64,000 bases of DNA from Morchella semilibera. Lineage: Eukaryota; Ascomycota; Pezizomycetes; Pezizales; Morchellaceae. Of this stretch, positions 102 through 54,500 are shown one piece after another; position 1 is the stretch's first letter, and each line of letters begins with the position of its first letter. The stretch spans positions 62,001-126,000 of the forward strand of contig WBVU01000015.1 in assembly GCA_009192285.1 (NCBI GenBank), written 5' to 3'. Both the position numbers and the translations under genes were made by a program. The notes below the pieces were generated by a model. That model was not told the DNA's origin and did not search any database. It saw only the letters and a program-made list of their open reading frames with translations.

Positions 102-179
102 TGGAGGTGCCGAAAGTCTCTATATATTATGTATGTATGTACTAGAGGTGCGGGTAAGATAATACATGTACTGTTCCAC

Positions 180-347
180 TTCACCAGGTCTTGGCGCTTT
201 TCACATACTAAAACAGGTAAATGGCATCGCTAATAACTTTTCAACAAGACAAGATATCAAGAATCTATGAAGCCAAAATCTTTATCATACCTATACCTAC
301 AATTTGGCTTCATAGATTTTCGATATCCTGTCTGGTTGAGAAGTTAT
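180..347. repeat. Hairpin element, copy A of a dispersed pair
   Basis: A long imperfect inverted repeat: about 44 bp at 231-275 pair with about 44 bp at 303-346, with roughly seven mismatches. The left flank, with the words TTCACCAGGTCTTGGCGC, and the arm sequence recur at 3121-3290, so this is a repeated family rather than a chance hairpin. It has no coding capacity. Confidence 0.6.
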
Positions 348-422
348 TCGCAGTGCAATTTATGTCACCTTTAAGGCGCGCCGCACCATATCTCCGGCCA
401 GGGATTACCTCCTTGAAGGGTG

Positions 423-562: not shown

Positions 563-630
563 GATCAGGTCTGCTTATAGCAATTTGGATCTCATATGCA
601 TAGCGAGAATGGTGGTACTTAAGTATAACT

Positions 631-996: not shown

Positions 997-1009
997 ATCA
1001 AGAACCACT

Positions 1010-2078: not shown

Positions 2079-3120
2079 TGCACTGTACGTGTCCAATAGA
2101 AGGTTTTAAAAGTAAATGAATCGAGTAAACGGATCAGGTAAACGAATTAAATCCCCCGGGTCTTATATTTAATTAACGTACGTTCTTAGGTAATGAATCA
2201 TTTGATTCATTTCCGGTACCGGTTCAGCTGGAAACGCATCTAGTTATTGATTCGTTCCTAGAGCCTGGTAGAGACTAAGTCACCATGCACTGTCAAAAAA
2301 AGGCTGTACCATACTTAGTTCTTGCCCCCCCCCCCCCTACAGCAGCACCAGTAGAATTTAGATACGCTCCAACAGTAGATAGCCTTCTCAAGCGAGGCGT
2401 GCCTGTCGGGGCCCGTGGAGCGCAACACCCTGGGGACCAGATCTAACCTTCCTTATATATATACATGTATATACATGTATATATATATATGCATACCGAC
2501 GGTACGTCCCAGAAATGAGATCCATCGCTAGAGGGTACGGGAGGCAAAGTTACTAGCTATGTAATTGCGTGGGAATAAAAAAGGAGAATTGTTTGCACGG
2601 AAAGAATAGTTTCCAACTCAGAGTAACCCGAATATCCAAAGTTGAATCAGCAATTGAAAATACCGTGAGGTTTCTCCGGGCGAGAATCTCATAACGCGCA
2701 ATACATACTATATAGCAACCGTAAAAACTCCATTTCTGGACTTAGCTTTCCAGCTTCACCGGTGGCTAAGCCAAACACCAAGCAGTCCCGGATCCCGCAA
2801 GAGCAAATTCAGCATGAAAAGTTCAGACATCCCCCATCCAACCGTACGGTGCTGTACCCCGGCCACCCCTTCTTCTATCTCTAGTACACTAGCTACATGT
2901 ATTTCCTCCTTCGCGAGAATGCTCCGCACTACACCATGTGCACCAAAAACCGTCCATGCGAGTATGAATTAAACCAAGAAAACCAAAAACCATCGATAGG
3001 AGACCGCGCCGGTCGCGAGTGAGAACCCATGACCCCGACCACCCACACCCACAGTCGAACAATGGTGCGGCGCGTCTTAGTGGTGGCTCTAGCTGAAAAC
3101 TAGTCTGTAGGGTATAACAA

Positions 3121-3707: not shown

Positions 3708-3953
3708 TACATGTACAGCCGCGTCCGCAAAGTTTTGGCACCCTGTAAAAACATCCGCGATTACAACAAACAAAATATTTCGGTCCCTTCCTCAAAAGGT
3801 AAGGTTGAGAAGGGTTGTGATAGACGGCACTATAGGGATATGTAACTATAAATGTCTTTGCAGTCACTCTTATTTGGTTGTTTATATCACGATTTGAACT
3901 CGTGAGCTTCGAGACTGGGGTGCCAAAACTTTGCGGATGCGGCTGTACATGTA
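3708..3953. mobile_element. 246-bp element with 36-bp TIRs ending in TACATGTA
   Basis: The arms at 3708-3743 and 3918-3953 are reverse complements over 36 bases with one mismatch (CGCGTCC against CGCATCC). Both outermost octamers are TACATGTA, the palindrome that is over-represented across the window. The interior of about 174 bp is AT-rich and non-coding. Because the octamer is itself a palindrome it could be either the terminus or a duplicated target. Confidence 0.7.
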
Positions 3954-5241: not shown

Positions 5242-5625
5242 ATGGAAGACCCAACTTTAACAACCACGGCCGTTTCGATGACAGCTACATGTACTTTTGC
5301 CAATTCTGCAACCGGAGTTCAGGATATTCCGCTCCATACAACGCTGCGCACCGCCAACCGAGAGGAGCAAAGCTATATTTTCGGTGTAATCAATACTGTT
5401 AATAGTACTGTTGGTGTTTTGGTCGCGACCCTTACACTAGCGTTTATGGGATACAAATACTTGCAAAAAAGGCGCCAGCGAAATGTGAGCGCCTTGTTGT
5501 CATCAAATCATGCCCTATACCCTATGCTTTCTCTCTTGCCCCACCTATTATTCTCTTTTGCCCTATGCCCTATACCCTACTCTTTCAGCCTATGCCCTAT
5601 GCCCTATGCTTTATATCATAGCTGA
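5242..5625 (+). CDS. Candidate small membrane ORF, 127 aa (doubtful)
   Basis: An ATG ORF with one hydrophobic stretch near residues 58-74 (GVLVATLTLAFMGY) followed by a basic KYLQKRRQR patch, as in a single-pass membrane protein. I recognise no family. The C-terminal third is translated from a CCCTATG/CCCTATA low-complexity tract (about 5513-5612) and is not believable as protein. A GTGAGC donor-like site at 5484 could remove that tract by splicing, but I could not settle an acceptor. It sits in a MITE-rich region with no gene neighbours. It could equally be a chance ORF. Confidence 0.2.
   Translation: MEDPTLTTTAVSMTATCTFANSATGVQDIPLHTTLRTANREEQSYIFGVINTVNSTVGVLVATLTLAFMGYKYLQKRRQRNVSALLSSNHALYPMLSLLPHLLFSFALCPIPYSFSLCPMPYALYHS
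5513..5612. repeat. Degenerate CCCTATR heptamer tract
   Basis: Repeated words CCCTATAC, CCCTATG and CCTATGCCCTATGCCC with interruptions over about 100 bp. They resemble telomere-like heptads only loosely; the unit is not the TTAGGG complement. Low-complexity DNA. Confidence 0.6.
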
Positions 5626-8600
5626 TCCGCTTAGTCATCGAGCACCCCTGTCACGGACCTTGCGTGCCCACACCCGCGCCCAGATAACAACGACATTCTC
5701 TGCCTCTGTTTCCTCCTCATATACATTACATCGACTACCCAAAGCCGCGACCTCCTCAGACCCACGATCCAGGCCCCGAGAACCCGCAGAGAAGGTGCCT
5801 AGGAACGGAGTGCACTTTTTGTGATGGAGAGTGTGGTCTAGCTACATGTTCTGACTTTCATCTGTTTTTTTTTTTTTTTTCATAGCCTCGCGATCGCTCA
5901 TCGTTCTTTCCTTTGTATATACACACTCATATATATGGACCTTTCATTTGTATTTATATGCGCAGTCATATTTTCCACTACAGCACACTCCCGCTATGTC
6001 CTGGACATGTGAAACATTGTGATTGACTGGAGTAGATGGAATTTCAAGTAGGTAATTTCAAGACTGATACTGCAGCAAACTGACATGTACAGTAAAGCTT
6101 GAAGATCACATTTCGCCAATGCCTGATCACAACTAGATACATGTCTATATATAACAGCTGCATGCCAGCACCAGCCGGATCAATTCGTCTCGGCCACACA
6201 GGACGTCGAAGCTGCCTTTTCCAGCGGTCGAGAGTCTGAGGGGCGTATACGTATTCAAGACCGATAAACAAACTCCAGCGTTTTGTGCGAGACGGATTTT
6301 GGCGCGGTATTTTAGTATGTATATACTTACGTTTCTTATTCAAGGCCGGCCTACACATGTACATGTATGTACAATACGAAAAAATGGGGGTATCACTATG
6401 GTAGTAGTGCGGTATTCTTATCTATACCGTATTCTCCTCAATACCGATTTATGACGGCGTTAGGGGAAATATATATTACAAAGAATACTAACTAGCGCGC
6501 TCCGGTATAGCTGATTAGGTCTAGTACTTCCCAAAGAGGTGCTAGACACTACATGTACCTAGGATTACCGGAAAGTGATGCAACGACTCGACTTACCACT
6601 CACAATTTCAACCACATGCAGCCCAATTGTAGCAACAATATATGGTATACAGAGTAAACAGATCAGTAAAAAGAATTCATCAATCATATTTATATAAAAG
6701 AAATCAAGGTGGTTGTGAATTTACCAAGGCCCCACCTAACAGTGCAATCCCAAGCCGTTGCACCACTTTTAGAGACCCCTGGGTACATGCAGTATGCTGT
6801 CCATACATGACATGTATGTAAAGGGGGACTGTCTTCTTCGTTCCTAGGCTCACACCCAGCCCTCTCTACACTGGCACCCGCGGTACTATATCATCATCAT
6901 GATCATCATCATCATCACGATAATTGTCGCTTGAGTGGATGGCACTTGTATTAAAAGTACCTAAGTATGCCTATATCATGAAAATCTATTTTTTTAAAAA
7001 GTATTTCCCAGTTCTGGAAGGCCCATCATCAGTAGATAAGCCCTGAGGTATCTGTTGATGAATTAATATCTGGTGATGTTCATATTTGAGATGCTTCAAG
7101 CTTAAAATGCGGAATTAGGGTTAGGGAATGAAAGTTTTGAGCGCTTCCCTATATTCTGCAGTTTCACTAGAGTACTACTGTAGTTAGTAAAAACCCAGTA
7201 TTAAGACTAACCTTGCATTCTCTAAAATATGTATTCTGGCCACAACTGTATTCTTACTGTATTTCTTCAAATTTCGGTATCCTTTTCCTTATCGTAGTGA
7301 TACGATAGTGACCCCACCCCCTTTTTTCGTACTGTACCTATGCCGTCGGTCCGTCCGTCCATATGTTTCTACATATAAGCCCTAGCCAAATCTATACTTA
7401 CTGTATCTACATGTACTCGCATACCCGCAAAGTATTGGCACACACACCAAACTGCACAGAACCCCGAGGTTTGCCCATTTAATTCTCCTCATATCATGTA
7501 CTCTATGTACGTAGTATCTAGGCCTCACCATGGCCAGCAGGAGCCTTTTTTCTTCTTTTTTATATATCAGCTGTATATGTTTAAGGTACAAAAAAACATT
7601 GCATAGAGTATAAACTATGGCATAAAAAACCGCTGTGCCTCCTCAAGACTACAAACGCCGACAAAGGAGAGAACATTGGGGGGAATGGGACCTCTTCGGT
7701 TGGTTGCCTTAGCTCAGTGGGTGCCTAGATTGCAATTGGGACACGCAGGAGTCTTTTTTTTTTTTAAAAAAAAAACCAATTGAATTTTGGTTTACGGGTA
7801 CAAAACCAGTAAAGGAGAACCTATGGCATATACACCGGCAGGAGTCTACATACCCATATTTATATGCATGTATAGGCCTTGTCCATAAGGGCCAGGAGTC
7901 CTCAGCCCATGGTAAACCGTGTCCAATTGATTAAAGGTATATCTATTCGCTGCGTTTCTCTATAACTTTGCCAGTACCGCGTCCCAGAAATCTAGCCATG
8001 AGCCTCCTGCACCCACACCATACCTGGTAGGTCAATTGCAGCTTTGGTATATTTCCCAGTTTTGGTGGTTGCGCCAATACATGTTGGTTGGGTATGCGGG
8101 TAAGCTAGCTAGCGAAGAAGTGCTTCGGTTGTTTCATATAAGCGTTTAATTCCGGACCCCAAGGCTGCCTTTTTTGTACGGCATGCTAGTCTCGTTCCCA
8201 GCCCATACGGTGTGATGTTGGTGGTGATGTTGGTGGTGGTGGTGGTGGTGGTTGTGACCGATAGGTTCATCACAGTAGGGTCTGAAGCAATAACCTCCCG
8301 GAAAAAATCCGGGCCTCTAAATAACCCCGCTGGACTTTTTTTGGTAGAGAATCCGGGGGCTCGTTGGCATAGAAACCGGACTTTTGGCATATATAGCAAC
8401 CGGGCAAAAAAGGACTGGTACAAACCCCTTGGTTGGGCAAGCACACCAGATCACCCTTCCGGTATTGAGCCATACAACAAAAAGGTACCGCTGGGGTCTG
8501 GGAACGAGCTATATCTATAGCTATAAGTAGTGGCCGGGTCGGGTCCATGGATTTGCGAGTATAGCTGCTGCAAGAGTGCCCCGGCTGTATATAGAATACC

Positions 8601-11819: not shown

Positions 11820-14800
11820 GCTGAGGGAATAATGGTTGGTGGGTAGGCCTTCTTTTTTATTTCTATTTTTAATTTGTTTTTGGTTCTCGGTTTTTCGTGG
11901 GCACGTGAGATACCTAGATGGATAGCAATAATCGCTCCTCTGTTTTATTGTAGTTCTCTTTGTTTTAAAAGTCATGATACATAGAGTGTGAAACTTATGT
12001 TTGGTCCCAAAATGCAAAGTATGTACCTACACACCCCCATACGCGTCCCTTGTCAACTGTTTTGAATGTACTTGAAATATCGCCAACGGCTGCTGTTCCA
12101 CCATGCCATTAGTCACAGTTACTGGGGGGAGGGGGGGGGCCATTGGTTTCCACAAACATCACGTACCGGGTAGAACCGTTCCACAGGTGGTATTTGTGGG
12201 GATATCATGTGGGTCATCTTGTGTCTCGAGCCTTGTATGTAGCCCTGACAAGACAGCCTCGACTGCACATTTCGTTTCGTTTCATTTCGTGGTCGTGAGT
12301 ATATGGTCCGAATGTTGCATCCAGGCCATGGTACCATGCCCGCCTGACGGCATGGTACGTACCCGGGATCTTGGTAATTGGGTAGAGCACGTCCGATATG
12401 TACCCCTTTTGTAATCAACCAATTAACATCAAGCCAGCTAGGAGAATGAATATTCACCCCCCAACCCCCACTTTACTCTATGAGTCCCCCCCCGGGGGGG
12501 GGGGGTTGCTTTAGGCTTCATTGCTGACGTCGCTCAGATAACAGTCTTTTAGGCCGGCCGCTTGTCAGCCTCAGAGATGAGTCTTTTTGGTTAACAGAGA
12601 TGGACACTTTGCTCGGTTGTTGGGACCAATCAGTATGCTGCTTGAGATGTAAACCCGTTCCTTGTTTCTCGGGAGGGATTGGCTGTAGTAGTAGCAGTAG
12701 ACTGTAAAGCAACGGGTTCTAGACGCCAACTAACTACATCTAGGTTCCTAGGCCTACATGTACTTATTCTACTTGCGCTATAGAGGATCACATGAAGACG
12801 CGGCTGGACGACGTAATCATGGATTATCACTCGGTACTCAGTATGCAATCCGCTTGGTTCGCAATGCATGCAACCGCCCCCCCACCCTGAAATCCAGGCT
12901 GTCCTGCTGTTCCTCGAAATCTATTTATGTATCCTATGTATGCCCCATTGCCAGCTCAACGTATGTACCCAATCCGTGCTAGTGGCTCGCGCGCACGGAC
13001 CACTGATTCCACTCTATTGGTAGCTATATTGGCTTGGCTACACGCTGAATGGTGAAGCAATGTGGCTGATTGTATAATACCTACCAATGGCTACAGTTTG
13101 TTTCTTCTGCTCTGGCCATTGGCTCATGTACCCGCCCGAGCTGCTGGTACCCCAGCTTTATCATCATGTAGTGGGTTATTCAGGGGCGGTTTCGCAATTG
13201 ATCATCTTTGGGTAGGTGGCTCGTTGGAAAGAACACTGCGCTTTTTTTCTCTTCTTCTCCGGGCTTCTTTCACTAGTTAGCTGGCTAGCTATGGCTGAGT
13301 AACATAGCAGCTTGTAATTGTGGCGACTACGCAATTTGGTTTTTTCTTAATTGATTGGAATAGAAGTGTGGGTAGAGTCACAGAGGCACGTACGTCTCTC
13401 TCTTTCCTTTACAGAGCAGATGAGTACATGTAGGTAGCCATGAGTCAGTTGGAAGGAGAACGGTCTTGAGACTGGGCCTGAGAGGACCGTGTGAGCGGTA
13501 CAGAACAATGAAAGCACAGCGAGCAATGTATAGCTGAAACGGTGTGGCGTTGTCACTTCCCACTTTGATCGGCTCTATGCCAGCTGTCGGTGTAGTTGGT
13601 AGTTGTTCTTAATGATTCCAGAAGCTGTACGTCTGCTGATGCTTTCTCGGTCTCAAACGCCCGTGGATGTGGCTAGATGTTGGGTTCTCTGCCCTGGCCT
13701 CTAACCGTGGGTGAAACCTGGTACTCGTTATGCTAGGCTGAGAGATAGGGTAGGGCGAATAGATGTTTGGAGCTTGTCATTACGGGACACTAGCGTAGTT
13801 GAGAGGCATATGTAGAATTTTAGGCCTCATTCGTGCCTCTGGTGGGGCGTTCTAGATAGAAAGGATTCCCAGGTGACTAGCTTGACACATTATGCGGGGT
13901 CCGAAATTAGGGTTTCTACCCTCGTTTTGGATTGTCTCTTGCCCCAGAGATCTACTGGATATGGGCATTAGCTCTGCGCCCCTCGGCCTGTGAAGAAATG
14001 AAGAAGATAGACAAGGCTTAGGCTTTTGGAAGCATGTATGTCGTCGAGCGAATCTTAAGAACAGTGGATGCTGAAGCTAAATGCTTATGGCCGGGGTTGA
14101 GGCCGGGGTTGAAAAACCCCAGCAGGGGGTTTTTTGGGGGGTGATCCGCTCGGTATTTAATTGAAGTTAAATGTTGGGGGTACATACCAGGTACGTGTTA
14201 CCCTGAAGTTTAGGCCTTAAAGTGTGGGTACGAGTGTGGGTATGTAGTTGTACATGTATACATGTGTTGAGGGATCTGGCGACCACCGTAGAATATCAGG
14301 AACATCACCTGCCAAGCGAGACCTAATCTGCGGATGAGCTTTCCCGATCGACTTGCTGTGCGATGTCATCTCACGCATTCCATTCCTGCGGGACCCGTCT
14401 GTTGCAACTCGAATATAATACTCGGTGAAGTATAGTAATGATCACCAGTTATAATTATATGTAGTATTAGCCTTAACTCATTTGAATATTTACTACTGTA
14501 ATAGCTAGTAAATATAAATATAGTAGTGCTATTGGGAATTATTTGCCCTGCGGTGGAAGGAGGGGGGGGGGGGTGTACATACAGGGGTCTGTATCGTATG
14601 TTTTAGATATGTGCCTGTGTCGTGCAACCACACCGTAGTTGTGGCACTGCCTCTAATACATAGTAATGGGCTTTCGTCATCAAGGTATCGAGCTGGCAGA
14701 TAAAAGTCCCCACAAGCTTCCCCCATTTTTATCAGAAGGCACGGCTCTGTCGCCTTTTGCAAGAGAGAAAAAAAACTTGAATATACACGCGGTTCATAAT

Positions 14801-21283: not shown

Positions 21284-24122
21284 GATGGGTGGTGGTGGTG
21301 GTGGTGATAGGTGTATGGGAATCTAAATGATTCAGTGGCAGTAGTATATATATACACACGAGCGCCTCGGAGCTAGGCAGCCCATAGCCCAAGAGGGAAA
21401 GTAATAACTCAAAAGACCTCACGAACAAGGATTAACTGATTTATTTATTGGTGCAGATACCTATACAACTGCAACAATTACTCTGCCTAGCCCCAAACTG
21501 CTATGGCCCCATACCTCATTGATAGAAACCGTTATTAACCTCATGCAACGCAGGACGCCGTTGGTTTGTCCTACATGTGCCGGGGCTGTGTTCGACAACA
21601 GATCTAGATTAGTGATCTTAAACGTACCACCTAGACGTTGCTTACTTACTCTTACTTATATTATCAGATAAACCTTGTCTTAACGTATAGTTAGGATCCC
21701 AGCAGACAATCGATCATAGGTTCTCACTCGTTACAACTTAATTTTGTCTTTTATAGTTTATAGGCTCCTAAGGGTTCTAGGTGAGATTCGGGAGAAAAAG
21801 GGATGATAGACTTGCCTCGTGGCCCCTAGTAGATCTAACACTGCCGGTCGAGAGTTTCTAAAATACCAATTAGTATACACTGTATAGATGAGAATGAGGT
21901 CAATATACTTACGAATCCACGCTTAGTTCAACTGATTGCGTTAATGACGTTCCTAGAGGGCGTCTACCACAACTGCAGCCCTCTCCCACCCTGAAGACTG
22001 AGATCCCGAGACCTGTCCTGAAGCCTGGCCAATTAGAGGTCATATTAATGGGTTAATTGATGGACCTAGTGTTTGCGGAATCTTAAGCTAAAGGCCTCCA
22101 TATACATAACCCAATGATGCCGACTCTTCCGATTTATAATCGTTTTCGTATCGTCTCATATGCATTATTACCTGCGCAGACTCTCTTACTCCACCTACGT
22201 TGAAAGATCACAACAGTCAGACAGCGCTACCCACGTATAATTCTCATATCACGTATCATGGGTCTTAACTTGGTGATTGTCTTGGGGAGGGAAGTATCCC
22301 CAGTCTATATAGACCCATGTTTTCTGGAAACTGCAAAGAGGTAGTAAATCAGTTTTGGCGCGTGCCGGATAGTCTCGATAGTCTATTGATAACGTTTTCC
22401 GTGCGCGTACGGGGCGTGGGTTGGTGTGATAATCTTAAGTTCATCAGTAAATACATGTAATTATAGTGTTATTAGTTGGGATCCCAGAGCTTCATGTTAT
22501 TTACTAGAGTCGACGTCGATTGTATACATGTATTTAAGCTTCAGGGTGTTTTGAAGCGCAGCGCAGCCCAGTGCCTACATGCTTATTTGGCCAGTTGGTG
22601 CGAGCTTGTGTAAATAGATACAGACTTGGCCATTAGCCATACCCGCGTGGTTACATATACATGTATACAAGTCCATAGTTTGTTATTTGTTAGATACCAC
22701 AGCCCTAATATTTTTAACCTAGGACTACGAATAGCATGATATAACTTGACTACCATATCTTCGCTAGCCGCAATTAGTACATGTACCACCTACATATATT
22801 CCAGCGCTCTAATTTAATTACTCGCGACAAGCTACAGTATCGTCGCCAGCCCCATGGCCATATATACGGCGTAGTGTTAAAATTAGTGGTGTTGATGTTT
22901 AGAATGGCCGTGGGATAGTACCAAAAAAAGGTTGGGGGGGGGGGTGGTGGATCATAGCTACAATATCCCCGTCAACACGCTAAGAACACGCTAAGAATAC
23001 GGTACTGGTGCAGTACGTCTCTTCCCCCACTGCCGGTCTAACTCGGTATCAGTCACTAAATTCTGTAGCGATTTCACCCCCGTTATTTCATACTGTACCT
23101 CGCGACAGGTAATAAGTCACCGAAAGTACATCAACACTTACAGCTCCCATGCATGTAAGCAGATGTACGAATCACTCCTAGAAAGCAACGACCAATTAAT
23201 CACTGTATCGAATTAGTACTAGTCAAGTACATCGTAGATATTACTTTGGTGGTAGAGTAATCATATGCGGGATGCGGACAAGCTTACTTTCTGACTCATT
23301 TACTCCCGATATCACTAGATATATGAAGCCTCATAGAGTTGGTAGCCTAACTCACTGCGCCTCTATGTTCTTTGCCCAGTAAGATAGTTTATCAGTAAAG
23401 CACTAGGTACTATAGAATCCTTAACTATTTGCCTTTATGGCCTGACATGATCAACACCGGCTAATGATCGTGTAAATCTGCACTTCTGGGTAGCCCAATT
23501 AAGATGCACCTGCACGAACAGAAAGACGGTGTGGAGAATTTTAATCATTAAACTCAACGTAAACTCAATTATGCGTGTCCTATCTAGTAGCTAATTTACA
23601 AACATTGTACTAGTACATACTCGTAAACAAATCAAATAACCCTCTCCAACTCAACTATCCCAGTTACCATTAAACCTCCTCAATAGACTCAACATAACAA
23701 AGGAAAATGACAACGCAAAATTTAACAAAACATAAACATCATTAATCAATAACAGTAGCTTGATTTTTTTTTCTTTTTTTTCTTTTTTGTAAGTTCGCGA
23801 AATCATTGCTTCAAAACAGTAATAAAAAGACCAACATCGTTCTCGCAGACATACGAAATCAAAGGCCAACATAAAACATGGAATATAAGAAAGGGAAATC
23901 ACTAAAAACTGATATTCATGAATTTCATTAAAGAATTTGACCACCACCGACCAAAGGAAACCCAGTTATCCCGCAATCCCAAAGAGTGAAACCAACTCTT
24001 GAATCAAAGCCGGAAATCGAATAAATCAAATCTTCTCCTAATACTCCGTTTACAACCCAATTGCCTCATAGTCGTTTGGCAAACTCATATTCCAGGCTCC
24101 TGCGGTTCCCGCATCAGCAGCT
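21284..24122. other. 2.8 kb AT-rich intergenic region
   Basis: Upstream of the FAX-like gene and downstream of the zinc-finger gene. It contains four TACATGTA sites in 333 bp (22453-22785), an 11-G run at 22934-22944, one arm-like copy of the family B core at 23099-23117 and T-rich tracts near 23766-23790. There are no plausible ORFs. Confidence 0.65.
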
Positions 24123-26034: not shown

Positions 26035-28740
<2,706 letters not shown>

Positions 28741-31247
28741 AGAATGGCAAGTTTTTCGGTGTTAGGGAAGAAACGGGCAACTGACCCATGTACTTTTTTA
28801 ATATCAAAAGCAGGTTAGAATAAAAAGGGTTTCTTTTTCCTTTCTTTTTTTGTTGTGGAAATCTGTGATGTGATTGTGCGTGATTACGGGAAGACCCCTA
28901 TCGTCACACAAAAATGAGCTTCCTGCTTCTAGAAGCGATGACTCTTGTAACCACTTTACTGTTCGCAATGTAATCAGTACCAGATATCAGGAATGATCTA
29001 CCGTTAAAGGCACAAGTTTCAGAAGAAAGCTATGAAGCGCTATTTCTTGGACATGTGATTGGTCTAGTCCCTCAACTTAGCAGTCTAATTTACGGGGGTC
29101 ACACAGAATGTAACTCAATCTCCAACTCTAGAAGCTTCCTAAATCTCGTCTGACTCTTATTCCCTCATAGAAGCGTCAATTTACATATTATTGAATCGCT
29201 CAAACTGTTCTAGCACCTAAATGTAGTACAAAATGATATAGAGAATGAATTGGGTATATACAGAAGATGTTCTGGTATAAAAAATCGATAATTGACATGT
29301 AACCGGGTTAAACATGACCCATCACTCGCATATTAAAACCCTAGCAGAATCCACCAAACCCTGGGAATTAGGTAGATCCTGTAGTAGTCGTAGGTAAATA
29401 CATAATGGGTTAGGATCTTATTAGAGTAACCATAATTTATGAGTCTATAAGCCTTAGTTCCTCTCGCTTCCAGTCGCCGGTTTTGGGCGAAGGATCAGGA
29501 CTAAATATTATTAACAACCTCATGTACCTACAAATACATGTAAGCGCTAATCCTGAAGCCCATAACGACATGTGAATGAGAATACATAGGTATAAAGAAT
29601 GAGATGGCCCTGCAGGTATTAAACGTTAGCAGATCTAAGACCCGATACCAGAAATCCGAACCCTCCCAACCACCACAACGCACAACCATAAACTTTTCTC
29701 AGCCCTAATTAAGAAACACGTGGTATAACCCTCGCGACATTTTCATTACCTCGTGGGTATTAAACTAGAGGCTCATTCCAAGATTTCGCGTCGGTAGCTG
29801 ACCGGGCCCGGCATGTACGCGTGCAGTGGTGAAACCTGCATGTACTCCTGGGAGGCAGCATAACTCTCAACCCACGATAAGTCGAGACATCCTTATCCCC
29901 CCACGGCTCCGAGACATCTTCCCAAATCGGGCCACGAGAGAGAGATTTCGCAACCCAGGAATCTAGCTCCCTCCGGGGAGCTGCATAATAGCAAAGGGGG
30001 GGGGGGGGTGGAGATTGGGTACTTAAACATCCTTATATCTCAGTAGTACGTATTCTTTACCCCTCTGTGACATGGCAATTGGGTCCGTAAAGTTAAGGAG
30101 ACGAACGCCAAATCTATCCTCTTGACACGGCACGATTTTTTTCAATTGTCGGCTATATATGAGAATTACTAGGAGAATAAGTCTACGATTTCTGATTTTA
30201 ACCCAGTTATAGTTGGGGAGTAGGAACCTGAAGTGACCCGTACGAACTGGGTAAGTTTGTTAAGATCAAAAATCGGAACCCACCCCTGTTAATCACTAAG
30301 AAGCACGTTTACTGCCACATTATATACATAAGTACATGTAAGTAGGAGGCCTTGGGTTTTGCATTGTGTGGCCCGCAATAATGTACATGTATGTATCTGT
30401 GAGCTCACAATTCTCCGACTTAGTCATCAAAACAACCTCGAGGTGTTCGATACCAATTTTTTAAAAACGGCATGTCAGATCAGCACTTTCCAAGGTAAAC
30501 AAATGATCAAAGGGCGGTTATGTACCAATAAGAGAATAAGAGGCGTCTATGTTTAGAATTCCCCTACCAGACGGAGCTTAACCTTAGTTATCCCAGAAGA
30601 GCGGCAAGAACGTTTCAAGCCCGCCCACGTCCTGATTCGTTTACTCGCCCTCGTTAGACTCACCACCCGCGCTACTCCATAACCGGTTACACTACTGCGC
30701 ATCCCCCAACACAACAACCTTGTGATCTTCAGGTACAGAGCGCTTGCTTTCTGCTCCGTTAGGTGATTCCTTCCTCCGAAGCTCAAATAAAGAAACCCGT
30801 TTCTTTTGCCATTAGCAATCGCGCAATGATTGGCAACTGACTCGGTTCCCGGCTATTTTTGCATGGAAGCTTTTGCTTGCGGTGGTTTTAGGGTTTGATA
30901 CCAAGATTTTTGAGGTTTCAAATCATAGACAACGGACAACCTGGATCTGGTAAATATAATAGACACCTGTGTTGTCATTCCCAACACCAAGAAAAGAAAG
31001 AAGCAAAGACACTGTGTGAGTGACACTGTGTGAGTGAAAGGGGCTTGTTATATCTATCAATGCCTTCCCTCCGAGGCCCACCAGACCTCTTCACCTTCTC
31101 CCATCACTTACTTCACTGTCTCTTCGATCAATTAGAATTTTGTCGCTATTATAGGGCCGGATCTTATTTCCCTATTTCTCTATTTCTCTATTTCCCTGTT
31201 TCTGCTTTTTATTACCATATTCTCTCACGTTTCTCCGTATACATACC
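28741..31247. other. 2.5 kb intergenic region
   Basis: The AT-rich UBI3 3' flank includes a T-rich stretch near 28827-28852. TACATGTA occurs at 29535, 30333 and 30384, and a 13-G run at 29996-30008. A tandem GACACTGTGTGAGT pair lies at about 31009-31037 and a TATTTCTC repeat at about 31171-31200, immediately upstream of the secreted-protein gene. No gene is recognisable. Confidence 0.6.
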
Positions 31248-33878: not shown

Positions 33879-35335
33879 TACACCCTAGTACTTCTTATCC
33901 TCTTGGAACATCAGGAACACGAATACACCTGCACGATAGTGCAGAAATAATGTCCCGATTTCCGCTCGCCTATGCATGACGTTGCCCGTCACGCCCTGTA
34001 GCACACAGCCCCTGTCCTCCCTTTAACAAGCTTTAGGTCGCAAAGGCCTACCATAACAATTAAGCAGCAACACCCAAACCTTTCGTTAATTAAACAAAGA
34101 GACACGACTACGGGCTTCATCCGGCCGAGAGAGGGCGGTCGATGTCCTACGGGATCAAGATTTAGAGTACGCACTTACAAATCAGAACTTCATAGAGATA
34201 TTTACACCCCTAGTAGGTAATCAGGGGGGGGGGGGGGAGTATCAAGAAGCATGCTCCATGGGTGGACAGTACCCGATTAGACGTTCTGCCTGATGAAGGA
34301 GCAATGACTGACTCGTCTATCTGCTGCTGCTTCTTAGAATATGGCGTCAGTCCCATCGCCGGCTAGCTGCACGTGCCTATCGTATGTTTTCCGGCTCTAA
34401 TGTGATACTTTGCCCTGTAAGACTTCGATCAGCTATCAAAAGAATCGTCCGTAATGAGCTCGCCGCCTCTAGACTCTAGATTACAAAACAACTGCTAGCT
34501 TATAAGTAGTAATTACTGATTTTTTTCCTTATCAGATGGTATATACGTATAGAGTGGGGGAGTGCCTACTCTCGATATTTGTAATTCACAGCATTGAAAT
34601 AAGCTCTACTCCCGCGTTTGCCCCACATGTGCGAATAGGGTAAATTAGGCCCAATTGCCTCATGATCATCCCATATATACCGAACTTGCATCCGCCACAT
34701 ATAGAGTAGATCTCGTCAATTATTTCCCACCAGGGCCTCAATCAGATCCGCTCCGGCCATGTAGATACAATACCTCTACATTTCATAGCCCTTTTGCTAA
34801 GTGCTAATGGTAGAGATTCTTGATAGATACATGTATGTAGGCGCGATATCTAGAATACTCTTAACTACAGTACTGTTCGGCCAGCATCGGCGTCGACGGC
34901 CCCTATCTCCATCCATGTAGCTAGCTAGCGCACCCAGCGCGCAACAAGCCTCAGAGATGCCGGTTAACCGGGAGATGCGTATACATACGCCTTGTGAGTC
35001 GTGCACGCTCTTGGCACGCCTAGCTAGAGAATAAGCATAGCAGAATAAGGTGCATGGATTCGGCGAAGAGTCATGCCGGTTTTTTAATTTCTTCAATAGC
35101 TTGTATAGTGTAACTATTGCATGCAGTGTAATCAATTTTTTCTTTCTTCCTGATGCAAAATTTTTGGGGAAAGAAGAATGATACATTATAAAGGCTCTTT
35201 CCGTCTGCTCCATTTTTTTTTAACATCAACCAAACCTTACGGATTAGCACCTACCAACAGTACCAGGAGGCAAAACACTTGCAGGCAAACCACAAGAACC
35301 CTAGCTTAAACTTAATATTGATAGCAGTAGCATCA

Positions 35336-36741: not shown

Positions 36742-38058
36742 TGCCTGGTGCCGGTTCTTTACGACCCTCTAATATCTTGTTTAATGCTGGTTCTTTTAAT
36801 GCTGGTTCTTGTATTTTATTTGCTTCATGGTCTGAGGTATATACGGTTTTATAGGTAGCCCCATGGCCAGGATGGTTTGCATTTGGCTGGAGCTTGGTAT
36901 TATCAATAGCTTTTCACTTTACTGTTTAATGGGAAGTTAGGATATTTGAAGAGTAATGACGTATTTAATGGGTATTATGATCGATAATAAGTTCTATGTG
37001 TGAATCTCCTATTATACTTTAACTATCAAGGGGTGATATTACATAGGTTTCAGAGTCAATTTTGCGAAATGGTAATACTTGAGTTCACGAGATGATGATA
37101 GTTTTTTAAGGAGTAATTACAAGCATATAGTGTGTGTACCTCCCACCCCATCTTGGTTATATACCTTCATGTCTACACCTATCACACTAGTATGATCACA
37201 GCATCAGTATGAGGTGCACTTCACGGGCAAAGTGTAATTCTAAATTACAACCTCATGCTCCCTCAAGGGCTCCCATCACGACCCATCACTCACACCGCCA
37301 AGACAAAGATCCTGCAATAGTAAGCTGTGATATATCATATCCGCACTCCAAAGGCCAATCGTGTACCTTAGATAGAGTAATTTACTTGGTCATCCTCCCA
37401 TTCCTCCTCCAGTCAGAGCTTTCACCAGATTGGGCATGGCCATCTCTTATCGCTGGACCCTGGGTGCGCCACTAGTAAAGGAATCTACAGGGTGCGCTTG
37501 CTTTCCTGCTTGCCCCGCAGACCTTAGACAGAGCTAGAGTAGAGTAGGTAGAGAGGTATTGATCGTGACACTGTCTAACTGTTGCTGAGCTACTGTGGTC
37601 TACAAGTACATGTAGTTACCCCTCTATACTCCACTACCTACCTACATCAAGTTGTTATTCTGCGCCTACTTCTCGATTCTCTCTTGTGTCATCCTCCTCC
37701 TCCTCCTCCTTCTTCTCGAGTCGTACATACGTGGTGTGGTGGATACAACAACCCTGCTGTTGCATTCGTCAGGTACCTACATCATACATACATCTACGTA
37801 TCTACCTTCCAGATCCTACTTACATACACACCTTCATTACGCGAGAGTGTAAGGAGAGCCTCACCGAAGCCAAAAGAAGAAACGAAGAACTAAGCTCTAC
37901 AGGACCCTTACATACACCTCGACCCCCAATCCTTGCCAACCAACCCTCACCACCAGCTCCCCCACACAGAGTTAACCCCACCCCACAGAAACTTTATCTA
38001 AAGCTTCACCCAGAGCCCACCACCACCACCACAACCACAACCACAACTCTCTCGTTAT
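36742..38058. other. 1.3 kb intergenic region and VAC14 leader
   Basis: MFS gene 3' flank with a tandem TTTAATGCTGGTTCT pair near 36780-36811, one TACATGTA at 37607, then a CT/CAC-rich stretch with a CCACCACCACCACAACC repeat just before the VAC14 ATG. Overlapping ORFs here (37582-38066) are low-complexity leader sequence, not genes. Confidence 0.55.
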
Positions 38059-41143: not shown

Positions 41144-41895
41144 TCTCTTCTTTGCCGTCGCTCGCAATGTCTCTTTATGTGGTTTATGCTCTGCTCTTTT
41201 TCCCCGCATCTTTCTGTGCAGTAGACTGTATTTGTGTACTGTAGCCATGTCTTTCCCTTTCATTGTCTCTTTATGTTTCCGAGAGAGAGCGATTACGGTG
41301 TTAGTAAATGCGTTGTTGGGCTCTAGCCTGTTTCTGCGAGTGGTTAAGTACATGTATCATATGTACTTTCCTTGTATTTCTCTCTTTAATCTTTTTTCAT
41401 ATCTCATGTTGCCATCTTTCTTCAGTTCTCCTCGATTGGCGTTTGTTTGTTTGGTTTCAGCATATGAGCATGTGAGCATGTGAGCGATGAGTGTAAGGAA
41501 TATAATCTGAGATTGGGTCCTCAATTTGTGAACGAGGAGAGAGTGTGGTTGGGATGATTTTGGTTGTAGCGATTGTGCTGCCTAACGCGGTTGGGGTTGG
41601 TTGGCGTTAGGTGCGGTTGGGACCAGTGTGCAGCAGCAGCAGCATCTTGCAGCATGGGATATCACTCGTGCGTCATGGCGGCTCACTCGAATACACGCCA
41701 TGAACCTTTGTGGACCTGTCTTACTATCCCTTGCACAGATGAAAACTACCAGACCGCGACCCTCTATCAGCGAATATTAACCTAGTGCGGTAAACATTTC
41801 GAGATTTTTGTTTGGTTCACCGTAACAAGCAATATAATTCCTCTACTAAGCTGTACACGGTCCAGGTCGCGAATTTGACAACTTTCATTAGCCCT

Positions 41896-48568: not shown

Positions 48569-51500
48569 CTAACGGTTATGTCTTTTACGAAGATTGTCTC
48601 ACTTTTTATTTTCACTCATGTTTTCACATAATGTTCCCTTCACTTATGTTTTCACATAATGTTTCTTTCGCTTATCTTTTCTTTTGTCTTGAGGTAGAAG
48701 TGACGGATGTTCAGAGTCAATGGAGTAATATATATATCTGCAGCTGCACGTGTATCCGTGACAGGGTCTAAAATCGCTGCACAAAATGATCTTAAGACCT
48801 CCACTGAAACCTTTCAGTCTACCAGATAATCCAGAGACCAAAGAAAGCGAACTAAAACTGCGTACAGAGAGAGTAGTTAATAGGCAAGTGCATGTACTTT
48901 TCCCCTTGCCAAGACATCTAAGGTTCCCCCATTCCATGGTAACGACACAGAATATCACTCGGTTATCTGCCAAACCTACTTGTAGTCCCGTGCTCAGCCT
49001 ATGGTGGTTGATTCTCTGCACATACTGCTGTGCGACAAAACGCGACAACAAAACAACAGTCTGGGAACCGAGACTATGCCAAACCCTGTCTAAGCGGCCA
49101 TACGAAATTCGCAGTCGAATATTTCGCCCCCTCAAGCCCCGTCTTTATCCACTTACTCTTTCTCGTGACCACATAATCCCGTTGGGTCGTGGAGGGCTTC
49201 ACCTTTACACCCATCTGTGGAAACAGGCTTCAAGATCACAAGGATCACAACCCATCACTCGCGCCCCGCAACACCAACTCTGTCCCACCCCACCAAACCA
49301 GCTGCATGCTGCTGCTGCCCAAAAGCAGGGGGGGTCATGACATGTACCACACATCCGGGAGAATAAGCAGTAGAGCACACCGCATGTGCACAAACGGTTG
49401 CCAAGACCCTGAGACAGGAGCCGCCCCCCCCGCCCGCCCGCCTGCCTACCCCACGGAACGGACGGAGCAGACCCTCATAACGTGTCGGGTCCGCCATAAA
49501 ATATAATAGTTTACCGCCACGCCACGCCCCCTCCCCAGATATGACGCCTCGGGTGCTATGACGTTTTCTCATGCCGCCGGGGACCGGGGCCTTTCTGTGT
49601 GTGTGTGCGTGCTCACCTCCGGGCGTCTGTGGTGGGTCATGTTGTACGGTTATGCTCGTGTGTGTGCGTGCTCCGATTCCGTAGATTGGAGAGTGGAGAC
49701 GAGGGGACGGGGGTGGGTCGTGGTGCCCTGTGGGTGGGCGGGCACTCATGGTACATAAGCAAGTCCGAGTTATCTACATGTATGTAGGACGCAATGGTAT
49801 TGACATAATCTGAGTTCAATTTCTGTTTTCTCTTTCACACACCAGTCTAGTCTATTCCCAGCACAAACAAAAACACAGTACAGCACGGCCAAAGAAAGAG
49901 AGGGCGGTAAACATGATAAACAGATCTAAAACCACAACAACCAACTCGGATTACAAAACTTGTATGATGATATAATAATAGTCGCCGAGAAAAAAGGATA
50001 CCTGATGATTTTTTGATTTCTTTTATAAGCTTTAGCTTTCTTTCTTCTGTTGTCTATATTCAACCTATCAAACAGTGCGCGACGAGCAACCGCTGAAGGA
50101 GGACATATATATAAAAAAAGAGGTCTTAAATCAGAACACCATCCAAAGCTGCGCCCTTTTAAGAGAAAAAAAAAATCACAAAAAAAACAGAAGCCATTCT
50201 CCTGGCCCTCCCGTTTCCCATACACAGACACAGATATAAAAATAAAGGAAATATAAAATGAAAGAATATTCTACAGTGGGAAAAAAGAAAAAGGCACACA
50301 ATTGGTATCAAAACAAGAATCAAAGATATCAAAAATTCCCGGGAACCTTTCCCTTAATAAAAAATAAAAAAACCAACCAGACCAACCCAATAACTATAAG
50401 AAAGGAAACCCAAAATGTCCATAAAAGAGCGTAAGAATCGAAACGGTCCTGAAGGGGAGGAGGAGGGTGAGGTGAAGGGTTCGCCGAGAAGAATATTGTA
50501 GCATGAGTACGTGGGGGTAATGATGATGCTGAGGTTGCTGCTTGTAGTAGTTGTATAGCCTCCGTATTGTAGTGTTCCGGCCGGCCGAGCTGTAGGTAGA
50601 GGCTATATATCTCCTTCATTGTTCTTTCTTCTTCGACTTCTTTCTACCGCATCTCTCCCTATAACCCTATCCTTCGGACCTCCAAGGTTGTCGTGGAAAA
50701 TAATACAAATCATCATTCAAATACTTCCTTCCCCCATTCCATTCCATCCCAACCACCAAACTTCCCCCGTTCCAATCGGCTATGCGGTGCTGTGGTGCGG
50801 CATGCATGGATGGGGGGATTCCAGCGGGTTTGGTTGGCCTGCCTTCCTCCTTGGGCCTAACTGTTGTTTGAGCCCCGTCGACTCGACGATCCCGTCTCTG
50901 AGGCGCGGAAACTGCTCTTTTGTGGACTGGCGGGCTGATATGAGTTGTACACGTATTCACCACTACATGCACATGTTAGCCTTGTCCAAAGGGCAAAAAC
51001 CCCAAACAAGGGCGACGTGAACATACTCGACATATTTTGCGTCCGAGATGAAGGTGGTTCTTTTACGCTTGGTGTATCGCTGCTCTAGTTTATACAGTTC
51101 GTACTCTGTTTGTTTCCCCGGTTAGCAACAGCATCTCTGATTCGCGGATCTATCAAACAAGTAGAAGTCCAAACAACCTAACCAATCACGTGGAGGGTGG
51201 TAGATTGCTGGGTTGCTAGGTAGAAGGGACAGAGAACTACTCACTTGCGTGCAGTTTATCAAAGAGCCCCATGTTGAATCTCACAGACTGACGAGGTAGA
51301 AGGCCCGGTTGTTTGACTTTGGCTCTTTAGCTTTGGGAAGGGCGGTTTGTTCCCTTTCTCTTTTTTTTTTCTTTTTCTTTTCCTTCTACGGGACGGTGGT
51401 ATCCAGATTTGCGGCGGGCAGCAGCAGCAGCGAGCAATGAGCGGATGGGGGTGGGGTGAGAGGGTGGGGAAAGAGAAGAGAGGAAAGGGAAAAGAAGAGA

Positions 51501-54500
51501 AGAGAGGGAAAGAAGGAAGGACGGGAATATAAAGTAGAAGTAGAATGTAGTAGAACGGGAAAGGGTAAAATGAAGTAGGTAAGTAGTACAGTTAGGTAGA
51601 TCCCAGCCAGCCAGCCAGCCAGAAACAACGCAGTTTAGTTGGTAGGAATTACAAAAAAAAATGAGGAAAAAGAAAAGAAAAAAAGAGGAGTGGCGGCTGC
51701 TATGGTAATAATTAAAAACTAATAATAATACGGTGCAAAAGGGGGGGGGGGTGGGAGTGGTGGAGGTGGAGGTGAGGCTAGTAATACCTTAGAGTAGGCA
51801 CTACTACTCTTAGCTGCTCTGGGATTGGATGGGGTGGGGGGGGGGGGGAGCCCAGGGTTCGGGTACCTAAATTGATAAACTCTGGGTAGATGCAAGTTGG
51901 GCAAAAGACGGCTAAACCAGCGAGTTAAAATGGATATGGACAAAAAAGCTGCAACGGGCCAGGGTGGACAGCTAAGGTACATTACTCTAGCTGACTGAGG
52001 GCGCGGGCTTTTTTTTTCCTGGCAGCAGCTGCTGCAAGAGGAACAGCTAGACCAGAACATCAGGCGTGCGTGCAGCCAGGCATTCAGGCATGTTTATTCA
52101 CATCCATACAGAACAAGAGTGTTTCTATGTGCGTGAGAGTGTTTTATTGGTGGGCTTACCCACGACAAACACACACCATGGTTCGGGTCATTCCTGAGCT
52201 ACTTGCTAGGGGAAAAAAGGAGGTGGATCGCACTCTCTCCACGCACGCGACAAGCCCAACGCCACAAATCCGCATCTGACACTTCTGGTTGGCCCTGTTC
52301 CTGACCATCTCCTGCCCACCCGTGTCAGGGAAGAGAGCGAAATCAAAAAGTCTCCCTTCGGCCTGGGGAGGAAGGAGGGCCTGTGCGTTGCACACAACGG
52401 TAAAGCAGAGAACCCTTCGAGGGAATGTTTCAAAGACATATCCTCCCATTCAGGCATAGCTCCGCTCGCTGACAGAAACGGGCAAGTGATCTATCTCGAC
52501 AACCAAACCAAACCAAACCAGAGGGGGAAAAAAATGGCTGTGAGGCCTTTTTTTCCCTCGCCCTCTCAAATTTTGTGCCGTTCACGCCGGCTCTACAGCT
52601 TTGTTTATTGGGGAGTAGGGGGTGGGGATGTGTGCGTGTGGGAAAAGAACCTCGCTTTCTCTCCTCTCCGCAGGACTGGTACCGAATTTCCCACTCCTCC
52701 ATTCCTGGACCCGCCGCATAACCGCATTTAGAAAAATAGTTCAGCCAGGCTAGGGAGGGCCGGGGGGGCCAGAAACCGCATTTTTTCTCAACCCGGAAAA
52801 TGTGCTGTACAGCTCAACAAGAGGGGTCGATTTGCGTCTAGAGTCTACATGTACCTACATACATGTAAAGTAGCTTCCAGCTCGTGGACCTCCAGCTAGG
52901 TGCTTGAAGTGCTATCGACTGCGCTGGACAGGACAGGTAGGACAATTTCTTTTTTTTTTAGCAGGCAAGCAGGCAGGCATTTTTGAACCATTATCAAATT
53001 CCAGCCCATCATCTCCCATGGAGGCTAAATTATTGCGCGCGTCTAAACCTGTTTTAATTTCTATTTAACTTTTTCTCTATTTCAAGCCACATTCTACTCC
53101 CCCCCCCCCCAAACAGTAGAGGTAGACAGACGCCCATCATACGACTGCGGCTTGGGCCGCCCCATATTCCCATTCATTATTATTCATCCCCCCGAATTAG
53201 AACAGGACACTGGCCCGCCCGCGCAGCAAGCAAACCACCACGAGTCCACAGAAGGCCGAACACGAACTCGGGTCCGGACGACCCAACCCGGGGCTCGGCA
53301 GGCCAATAGGTAAGCGCAGGGAAAAAGGGCAAGCACCTAGCTCCTGCCGTGAAACCCGCCCATGGGGGGGTGGTCGGGGTAGGAGGGAAAGTGCAATGTT
53401 ATATTTATTGCTCCGTATTGAAACAAACCCGATCGCGAGTTGTACAGATCAACGATCAAGGGGAGAAAAGAAAAAAAAGCAAAAGAAAAAATATATATAG
53501 TAGGATACCCAACAGCATATGTAACTTACAGTAGTAGGGTAGAAGAAAGTGCTGTTGCTGCGTGCTGGTCAAAAGTGCACTTTTTGGTTTTTTTGCATCT
53601 TCAAAGTACCTGCATAGGGTTAGGTTACGAAGTGAGGCGGGAAAAGCAACAAAGGAAAATGAAGATGCGCGCGAGAATCCCATCCGATGCTCTAGCTCTA
53701 GAATGTCGAGATGAGCTGTCCGGGGCCAGGACTGTGCGCGCGCGCATACGTACTGGCACATAATCTTCTGCTCGGGCCCGCTGCTATGTGGAGCTATGTA
53801 CTTTATGTATGTGCTCTACAGAATCGCTAATCTGATTCTGCTGCGAAAGGGGATACATCACATCAATGACAACATCGAAACAGCACAACATTTCCCGTTT
53901 CACGCACAGTTTTCAGATAGAGGGTGAATCCGTACATAGAGTAAAGTACATGTTAGGGGGAAGAGTGGGGAGGGAGGGAGGGAGGGGGTTGCTCTACATG
54001 TAGCCAACCACAATGATGGATCGCAGCGGAAGGTCGGCCGTAAGGGGCGCTCGTTGGTTCAGATTGAGTGCTCTATAGTCAACTCTGGGTGTTGTGTATA
54101 GGTACGAGTAATCACGCCCTGATTACCCTACCTGCCTAGGTGTACCTAGTTACATACTTGCCTTGTAGGTCCTACTTTGACAAAGGAGACCATAGATCGT
54201 GCAGAATGTACCTACATGGTGTATGTAGGTATCACCACCATTAACCTAGCGAGGGGACGAGAGCACACGCATGTATGTACTCTAGAGTGGGTATTCACAT
54301 ACATGTACTCTATACAGTATTCTCCCCTTCCTCTTCCCCCCCCCCCCCCCCAAATCACCCAATCACCCAACCAGAAAACAGCTAGATATCAACAAAAACG
54401 CACGAGAAACTGTGTTACTCTAAGGTACAGATCTCACTTTTTTTTCTTTCCCTCTCTACTTCTAGAGCAGATTCACGGACTCTCGAGTACGAGTGTCTAC

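What the first reader, a model, noticed from the sequence alone, without database searches (positions are those of the whole stretch)
173..54307. Palindrome TACATGTA is strongly over-represented and excluded from coding exons
Reading through by eye I find exact TACATGTA starting at 173, 2462, 2472, 2894, 3708, 3946, 5286, 6360, 6550, 7408, 12755, 13425, 14251, 22453, 22525, 22660, 22778, 27008, 27077, 27155, 27468, 29535, 30333, 30384, 34828, 37607, 41349, 43110, 49775, 52846, 52860, 53995 and 54300: 33 sites, against about one expected for any 8-mer in 64 kb. None falls in a confidently assigned coding exon (5286 is in a doubtful ORF). Sites cluster, e.g. four in 22453-22785 and four in 27008-27475. 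It could be a binding site for a very abundant DNA-binding protein, the footprint of a small element that ends in this word, or a context-dependent mutation product.
Basis: partly seen in the sequence, partly recalled or inferred. Interest (0 to 1): 0.7.

Follow-up and report, generated by a model that had tools for sequence, protein, structure and literature searches.

The report
Abundant TACATGTA palindrome in a fungus
A fungal genome carries over twenty thousand copies of one eight-letter palindrome, absent from coding sequence wherever that was checked and sometimes paired exactly one turn of the double helix apart, which looks like the landing site of an abundant, still unidentified DNA-binding protein.

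Summary
The window has 33 exact TACATGTA (about 1 expected), 30 at the stated coordinates. The 56.76-Mb genome has 22,206, against 3,723 for the reversed word. In a 263-kb sample it is 38-fold over first-order expectation; single-mismatch neighbours reach 5-fold at most. None of 123 sampled sites lies in predicted coding sequence, but coding composition predicts only 0.3-0.4 there: unenriched in exons, not demonstrably excluded. It belongs to a longer palindrome, TA-N-V-TACATGTA-B-N-TA. Perfect copies pair at exactly 10 bp 606 times genome-wide, against about 69 at other short spacings, with varied spacers. Sampled sites share almost no flanking sequence. A dimeric protein site fits better than a transposon footprint or mutation product. 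The same word is a published abundant promoter motif in Phytophthora, an oomycete (PMC3520976, PMC3597505, passages read); this organism is a true fungus, and nine paper searches listed no fungal report that I saw. The binding protein is unknown; the one KN homeobox gene found lacks the Irx-type residue (recalled). Function is inferred, not shown.

The parts
163..170 (.). TACATGTA site
2462..2469 (.). TACATGTA site, first of a 10-bp-spaced tandem pair
   Evidence: exact match; pair
2472..2479 (.). TACATGTA site, second of the 10-bp-spaced pair
   Evidence: exact match
2894..2901 (.). TACATGTA site
   Evidence: exact match
3708..3715 (.). TACATGTA site
   Evidence: exact match
3946..3953 (.). 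TACATGTA site
   Evidence: exact match
5286..5293 (.). TACATGTA site, inside a 162-aa frame without Pfam match
   Evidence: exact match
6360..6367 (.). TACATGTA site
   Evidence: exact match
6550..6557 (.). TACATGTA site
   Evidence: exact match
7408..7415 (.). TACATGTA site
   Evidence: exact match
12755..12762 (.). TACATGTA site
   Evidence: exact match
13425..13432 (.). TACATGTA site
   Evidence: exact match
14251..14258 (.). TACATGTA site
   Evidence: exact match
22452..22459 (.). TACATGTA site; cluster of four, 1.1-1.5 kb 5' of the predicted 20522-21304 (-) exon (Tom37/GST-like)
   Evidence: distance; Pfam
22525..22532 (.). TACATGTA site, same cluster
   Evidence: exact match
22658..22665 (.). 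TACATGTA site, same cluster
22778..22785 (.). TACATGTA site, same cluster
   Evidence: exact match
27008..27015 (.). TACATGTA site; cluster of four, 1.4-1.9 kb 5' of the C2H2 zinc-finger exon 24171-25580 (-) and 0.8-1.2 kb 5' of a weakly predicted segment 28251-28457 (+)
   Evidence: distances; Pfam
27077..27084 (.). TACATGTA site, same cluster
   Evidence: exact match
27155..27162 (.). TACATGTA site, same cluster
   Evidence: exact match
27468..27475 (.). TACATGTA site, same cluster
   Evidence: exact match
29535..29542 (.). TACATGTA site
   Evidence: exact match
30333..30340 (.). TACATGTA site
   Evidence: exact match
30384..30391 (.). TACATGTA site
   Evidence: exact match
34828..34835 (.). 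TACATGTA site, 800 bp 5' of the predicted MFS exon at 35629 (+)
   Evidence: Pfam
37607..37614 (.). TACATGTA site, 452 bp before the ATG at 38059 that I read as the Vac14 start; inside a 165-aa frame without Pfam match
   Evidence: sequence; ATG position; Pfam
41349..41356 (.). TACATGTA site, 272 bp 3' of the last predicted Vac14 exon segment
43110..43117 (.). TACATGTA site
   Evidence: exact match
49775..49782 (.). TACATGTA site
   Evidence: exact match
52846..52853 (.). TACATGTA site, first of a 14-bp-spaced pair
   Evidence: exact match
52860..52867 (.). TACATGTA site, second of the pair
   Evidence: exact match
53995..54002 (.). TACATGTA site
   Evidence: exact match
54300..54307 (.). TACATGTA site, inside a 153-aa frame without Pfam match
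   Evidence: exact match

Best explanation
TACATGTA is the core of a cis-acting recognition site for an abundant, dimeric, sequence-specific DNA-binding protein of this fungus. The full site is a palindrome of about 16 bp, TA-N-V-TACATGTA-B-N-TA. Each TACA/TGTA half is read by one subunit with no spacer allowed between the halves. Two dimers can bind side by side at a 10-bp repeat, one helical turn, so that the outer TA of one site is the core TA of the next; at most about 5% of sites (606 pairs) are in such perfect pairs. Sites occur at about one per 2.5 kb, singly or clustered, outside predicted coding sequence. I infer that they act as general promoter or enhancer elements, or as chromatin-organising sites. 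Shown here: abundance, sharpness, symmetry, rigid half-site spacing, 10-bp pairing, absence of enrichment in coding DNA, and little shared flank among sampled sites. Inferred: that a protein binds, that it is a dimer, and that it regulates transcription.
For: 22,206 copies genome-wide against 3,723 for the reversed word. In 263 kb, 126 against 3.3 expected at order 1; by (observed-expected)/sqrt(expected) it leads all 8-mers at orders 2-4, homopolymers included. Single-mismatch neighbours are 0.7- to 5.1-fold, the site 38-fold. Half-sites are rigid: TACA-N(0)-TGTA is 22-fold, spacers of 1-3 bases 0.5- to 1.3-fold; with full sites masked, TGTA-NN-TACA is still 5.2-fold. Isolated sites (208 strand-counted) have T 51% and A 61% at -4/-3 and avoid T at -1 (7%). 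TTACATGTAA makes 387 of 22,206, against roughly 1,500 if both flanking letters were free (my arithmetic). Pairs 10 bp apart: 606 genome-wide, against 8.7 for uniform scatter and about 69 per spacing for the other 30 spacings of 8-38 bp. The 50 listed pairs have 8 spacer classes, led by CC/GG 16, AG/CT 12, CA/TG 11. The reversed word also pairs at 10 (37 of its 129 short-range pairs), but 36 of those 37 have the single spacer class AC/GT, which builds a TACATGTA in the middle; so that control is not independent, and free spacers are seen with TACATGTA only. Coding 0 of 123. 3 of 123 site queries align elsewhere in the sample. Depletion within 750 bp of predicted coding ends relative to words of the same letters: odds ratio 0.35, p=4e-5. 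Site 37607 lies 452 bp before the Vac14 start as I read it. Precedent: Phytophthora Motif-1 and M93.
Against: No binding, expression or chromatin data and no relative's genome to test conservation. No significant 5'-over-3' bias: 31 against 26 sites at 750-2000 bp (p=0.50). Gene models are crude: 25% coding, and first exons can be missed, as at Vac14, so distances are overestimated and part of the near-gene depletion may be undetected exons. Other non-simple 8-mers of 5-6 A/T also repeat at 10 bp somewhat (40 of 344 short-range pairs, and 78 at 20 bp), so short-period repeats add to the background; in that sample TACATGTA has only 14 such pairs, 5 at spacing 10. Excess single-mismatch neighbours are mostly transitions (about 63 of 84 excess, my sum from the table), as neutral decay of former sites would give. 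The only KN homeobox gene found carries WFINARRR, not the Irx-type WFANARRR (the Irx residue recalled), so no binding protein is at hand. TACATGTA shows no clear series at 20 or 30 bp; degenerate partners have a second, smaller peak at 14 bp (14, against 25 at 10).
Confidence: 0.68

Rival explanations
1. Excision footprints of TA-inserting (Tc1/mariner or pogo/Fot1) transposons: both two-base ends of an element with CA...TG termini are kept on repair, turning TA into TACATGTA.
For: The genome is rich in such transposases: 69 DDE_3 matches (57 over the family cut-off) and 96 DDE_1 matches, exon pieces and duplicated chromosomes included. TACATGTA is cited as a rare Tc1 footprint in C. elegans (PMC3520976, passage). 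TACATA/TATGTA are 2.6-fold with TACATGTA masked. Excess mismatch neighbours are mostly transitions, like decay.
Against: Some 22,000 footprints of a type called rare, with TACATA/TATGTA only 2.6-fold. The 10-bp pairing has 8 spacer classes, while nested footprints would give mainly CA/TG (11 of the 50 listed). The one element whose inverted repeats I could read (L036, of three fetched) has GGTACAGC after TA, not CATG. PMC3520976 did not expect this reading for Phytophthora.
Confidence: 0.12
2. A mutational, slippage or gene-conversion product linked to TA-rich tetranucleotide repeats (TACA/TACC), without function.
For: TACATACA and TACCTACA are also raised; TACA-TACA direct repeats are 4.3-fold with full sites masked; flanks favour TA at -4; other AT-rich words also repeat at 10 and 20 bp.
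Against: TACATGTA is a head-to-head palindrome, not a tandem repeat unit, and is several times more enriched than these words; spacing 10 is favoured with free spacer letters; coding DNA shows no excess.
Confidence: 0.12
3. Ends or target sites of a small dispersed element (MITE-like).
For: Sites cluster.
Against: Among 123 sampled sites only 3 queries align elsewhere in the sample across the site; little information beyond about 4 bases of flank in isolated sites. The sample is 254 kb of 56.76 Mb, so small families are not excluded.
Confidence: 0.03

Closest known systems
Phytophthora Motif-1 (PMC3520976) / M93 (PMC3597505), TACATGTA
   Same: Identical 8-bp palindrome, very abundant upstream of genes (12,070 genes in three species; 4,150 occurrences in P. 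infestans promoters), inverted repeat proposed as a homodimer site (passages read).
   Different: Phytophthora is an oomycete; this genome is a true fungus (70 Fungal_trans matches). Here sites are not shown to be tied to promoters or expression. I saw no mention of a 10-bp tandem rule or of TA flanks in the passages read.
Irx (Iroquois, TALE homeodomain) binding site TACATGTA
   Same: Same preferred word, as stated in PMC3520976 (passage).
   Different: The single KN homeobox gene found here has Ile, not Ala, in WF-x-NARRR (the Irx residue is recalled).
Tc1 excision footprint taCATGta in C. elegans (cited in PMC3520976)
   Same: Same letters, and TA-specific transposases are abundant here.
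   Different: Described as rare; abundance, exact spacing and spacer variety do not fit.
HIP1, highly iterated palindrome of cyanobacteria (recalled)
   Same: An 8-bp palindrome repeated thousands of times through a genome.
   Different: Different sequence, different domain of life; as recalled, HIP1 also occurs in coding sequence, unlike this one.
p53-type paired 10-bp half-sites (recalled)
   Same: CATG-centred decamers abutting at a 10-bp period.
   Different: Outer letters differ; no p53-like protein was searched for; an analogy only.

Membership tests
Phytophthora Motif-1/M93 type promoter element | Exact word TACATGTA, strongly over-represented outside coding DNA | tested here: met
Phytophthora Motif-1/M93 type promoter element | Concentrated upstream of start codons | tested here: inconclusive
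   31 against 26 sites 5' and 3' at 750-2000 bp, p=0.50; crude gene models
Phytophthora Motif-1/M93 type promoter element | Presence correlates with stage-specific expression | not testable with these tools
   no expression data held
Irx/TALE homeodomain target | Genome encodes a KN homeodomain with Irx-type recognition helix (WFANARRR, recalled) | tested here: not met
   one PF05920 match, read as WFINARRRRLP across an intron; exon-split relatives may be missed by a six-frame search
Tc1/mariner excision footprint | TA-specific transposases in the genome | tested here: met
   69 DDE_3 and 96 DDE_1 matches at E<=0.001
Tc1/mariner excision footprint | Site present as a 6-bp insertion relative to an empty TA site | tested here: inconclusive
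   only 3 of 123 sites have any aligned copy in the sample; none of the three shows an empty TA site
Tc1/mariner excision footprint | Resident element whose ends give CA/TG after TA | tested here: inconclusive
   the one readable element of three fetched, L036, has GGTACAGC after TA; n=1
Dispersed small element / MITE | Conserved sequence beside the word over tens of bases | tested here: not met
   (254-kb sample)

The most novel reading that the evidence does not exclude
A filamentous fungus uses a genome-wide system of more than 20,000 near-identical palindromic sites, on average about one per 2.5 kb, bound by one very abundant dimeric protein that can stack on DNA at a one-turn repeat. It would be a general regulatory or chromatin-architecture factor with no fungal counterpart known to me, arisen independently of the identical oomycete motif.
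Probability: 0.25. Interest if true: 0.75.

Novelty: new variant of a known kind. Interest (0 to 1): 0.52.

Why it matters
If a protein binds these sites, it would be one of the most widely used sequence-specific factors in this fungus and could be sought with a single DNA pull-down. The same word in oomycetes and in a fungus, two distant filamentous lineages, would point to convergence or to an old shared factor, and either can be tested. It also gives a clean case for telling a regulatory code from transposon footprints by comparative genomics.

Tried and rejected
Irx-type homeobox as the binder: searched PF05920; the one gene found is of the WFINARRR type. Tc1/pogo footprint: transposases are plentiful, but the one readable element end, the spacer variety and the weak excess of two-base footprints do not fit. 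Small element: sampled sites share almost no flank. Strict promoter positioning: an apparent peak 750-1500 bp upstream gave no significant 5'/3' difference at 750-2000 bp when each base was assigned to its nearest gene end, and first exons can be missed. Helical series beyond 10 bp: not seen. Spacing control with other words: the reversed word pairs at 10 bp too, but almost only with the spacer that contains TACATGTA; other AT-rich words show a weaker excess at 10 and a stronger one at 20. The duplicate chromosome copy as a conservation test: useless, 64,000 of 64,000 bases identical. Species name: not reached; the 5.8S search gave one sub-threshold copy, and the first rRNA search failed and was not repeated. 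Fusarium motif catalogue PMC2853525 (terms searched in its main text): no ACATG letters; degenerate spellings not checked. Papers on highly iterated palindromes in fungi: the ten papers listed did not hold that term.

Sample caveats: the first 13 non-window regions were chosen by hand (L016 lies in a stretch whose sites one search had already listed), and 6 came from a random list of 80. L005 and L006 were fetched because they hold a site. They are in the 263-kb count (126 sites) together with L003, and all three were dropped from the 254-kb count (123 sites). The genome-wide counts do not depend on the sample, but include the duplicated chromosome pairs. Spacing and spacer tallies use the first 100 places and the first 50 pairs, both on C1.


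Full report
Observation. The window holds exactly 33 copies of TACATGTA, against a shuffle mean of 1.05 and a maximum of 5 in 100 shuffles. The window is positions 62001-126000 of contig C12 of a 56.76-Mb, 23-contig genome. That genome holds 22,206 copies of the word, against 3,723 for the same letters reversed. The reversed word is itself inflated: 6 of its 8 copies in 254 kb lie within 12 bp of a TACATGTA. In 263 kb (window plus 22 stretches) TACATGTA occurs 126 times against 3.3 at order 1, 4.7 at order 2, 7.4 at order 3 and 20.3 at order 4. By (observed-expected)/sqrt(expected) it leads all 8-mers at orders 2-4, low-complexity ones included; at order 1 only poly-A ranks higher.

Organism. 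It is a true fungus: 70 matches to Fungal_trans, and NLR-type, ankyrin, MFS and Vac14 genes in the window (that these look fungal is my judgement). The species was not identified.

Anatomy of the site. Single-mismatch neighbours are 0.7- to 5.1-fold over expectation while the exact word is 38-fold. The two halves are rigid: TACA directly followed by TGTA is 22-fold, and with 1-3 bases between them 0.5- to 1.3-fold. In sites without a perfect neighbour within 24 bases (208 strand-counted), T is avoided just outside the core (7%) and TA is favoured at -4/-3 (51% and 61%); no position further out than -5 carries more than about 0.03 bits. TTACATGTAA is only 387 of 22,206 genome-wide. The extended palindrome is therefore TA-N-V-TACATGTA-B-N-TA.

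Tandem spacing. The pattern with starts 8 to 38 bp apart has 2,666 matches. Of the first 100 listed, 19 have spacing exactly 10, the next most frequent being 16 with 7. A direct count gives 606 pairs at spacing 10, against 8.7 for uniform scatter and a mean of about 69 for the other 30 spacings; these pairs involve at most about 5% of all sites. The 50 listed pairs have 8 spacer classes, led by CC/GG 16, AG/CT 12 and CA/TG 11 (spacers typed). Degenerate partners (6 or more of 8 matches, exact ones included) also peak at 10 (25, against 14 at offset 14 and 9 or fewer at all others from 8 to 40). With full sites masked, TGTA-NN-TACA is still 5.2-fold. Controls: the reversed word has 129 short-range pairs, 37 of them at spacing 10, but 36 of those 37 have the spacer AC/GT, which builds a TACATGTA between the two copies, and 1 has GC. 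Other non-simple 8-mers of 5-6 A/T, in 254 kb, have 40 of 344 short-range pairs at 10 and 78 at 20, against 5 of 14 at 10 and none at 20 for TACATGTA. So a weak general 10/20-bp repetition exists, but a fixed distance with free letters between is specific to TACATGTA among what I tested. That is what protein contacts one helical turn apart would leave; slippage or copying would also fix the spacer letters.

Placement. A simple codon-pair gene finder called 64.7 kb of 254 kb as coding; 0 of 123 sites lie there. Because coding composition alone predicts 0.3-0.4 copies, this shows lack of enrichment, not active exclusion. Within 750 bp of predicted coding ends sites are depleted relative to words of the same letters (18 sites in 65.6 kb, against 64 in 73.5 kb at 750-2500 bp; odds ratio 0.35, p=4e-5), with no 5'/3' difference at 750-2000 bp (31 against 26, p=0.50). 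The gene models can miss first exons: for Vac14 the first detected segment starts at 38698, but the ATG I read is at 38059, which puts site 37607 at -452 rather than -1090. That first exon was read by eye; its Pfam check was in the rejected and was not repeated. Distances are therefore upper bounds. Sites cluster beyond Poisson.

Not one repeat family. Of 123 site-centred queries of up to 308 bases, 3 have an alignment elsewhere in the 254-kb sample that spans the site; two of these are one reciprocal 31-base match, and the third is 68% identical. This excludes a common element behind most sites; it does not show that each flank is unique in the genome.

Transposon footprint tested. The genome has 69 DDE_3 matches (57 over cut-off) and 96 DDE_1 matches, so TA-inserting elements are plentiful, and TACATGTA is a rare Tc1 footprint (cited in PMC3520976). 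Against it: TACATA/TATGTA are only 2.6-fold with TACATGTA masked; the one element with readable inverted repeats (L036, of three fetched) has GGTACAGC after TA; and spacing-10 spacers are not mainly CA/TG. In its favour, the excess of single-mismatch neighbours (about 84 sites against 126 intact, my sum from the table) is mostly transitions (about 63), as decay would give. This rival stays open at about 12%.

Who binds. PMC3520976 (passages) states that TACATGTA is the preferred site of Irx homeodomains. The single KN homeobox match here (C14:782200) continues after an intron as VSNWFINARRRRLP, which has Ile where Irx has Ala (recalled). It is therefore not the expected binder, although exon-split relatives may have been missed. 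The CATG-centred decamer repeat recalls p53-type sites, but no such protein was searched for.

Known precedents. PMC3520976 and PMC3597505 (passages read; outline of the first) describe TACATGTA as a very abundant Phytophthora promoter motif (12,070 genes in three species; 4,150 occurrences in P. infestans promoters), associated with infection-stage or hyphal expression; the first names KN-homeobox proteins as candidates only. PMC6165875 (passage) mentions a similar motif in P. sojae. Nine paper searches listed no fungal paper naming this word as a motif in the titles and abstract starts that I saw; the listings were capped (for instance 40 of 229), fungal papers in them that contain the letters were not opened, and most subscription papers are not held. 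The finding is therefore filed as a new variant of a known kind, an abundant palindromic cis-element. The site features are shown; protein binding and function are inferred.

Noticed in passing
window 1-64000 (C12:62001-126000) and C13:62024-126023: A second contig of almost the same length carries the 64 kb with no difference. C9/C10 and C21/C22 show similarly paired hits: some chromosomes seem to be present twice in the assembly, nearly identical.
   Followed up: partly
L007 1501-1672 (C19:2699587-2699758): The only 5.8S rRNA match found in the genome is a sub-threshold copy (39.5 bits, cut-off 42); the 18S search failed, so the regular rDNA was not located.
   Followed up: no
window 16499-19474 (+): A 991-aa open frame with an NB-ARC domain, an NLR-type gene.
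   Followed up: no
window 45348-46697 (+): Ankyrin-repeat frame with an internal direct repeat of 240 bases at 85% identity.
   Followed up: no
sample of 254 kb: TATATATA/ATATATAT show 27 hits in the first 250 bp 5' of predicted coding ends, against 8 or fewer in every other 250-bp bin up to 2.5 kb on either side.
   Followed up: no
sample of 263 kb: TACCTACA and TACATACA are also over-represented (49 and 58 copies against 9-13 and 12-23 expected at orders 3-4); they overlap the TA-NV flank of the main site.
   Followed up: partly
sample of 254 kb: Non-simple AT-rich 8-mers repeat at 20-bp distance more than at other short distances (78 of 344 pairs); possibly a few minisatellites, not examined.
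   Followed up: no
L036 860-895 and 2260-2295: Tc1-like element with 36-base terminal inverted repeats, 97% complementary, around a 388-aa frame with DDE_3.
   Followed up: partly
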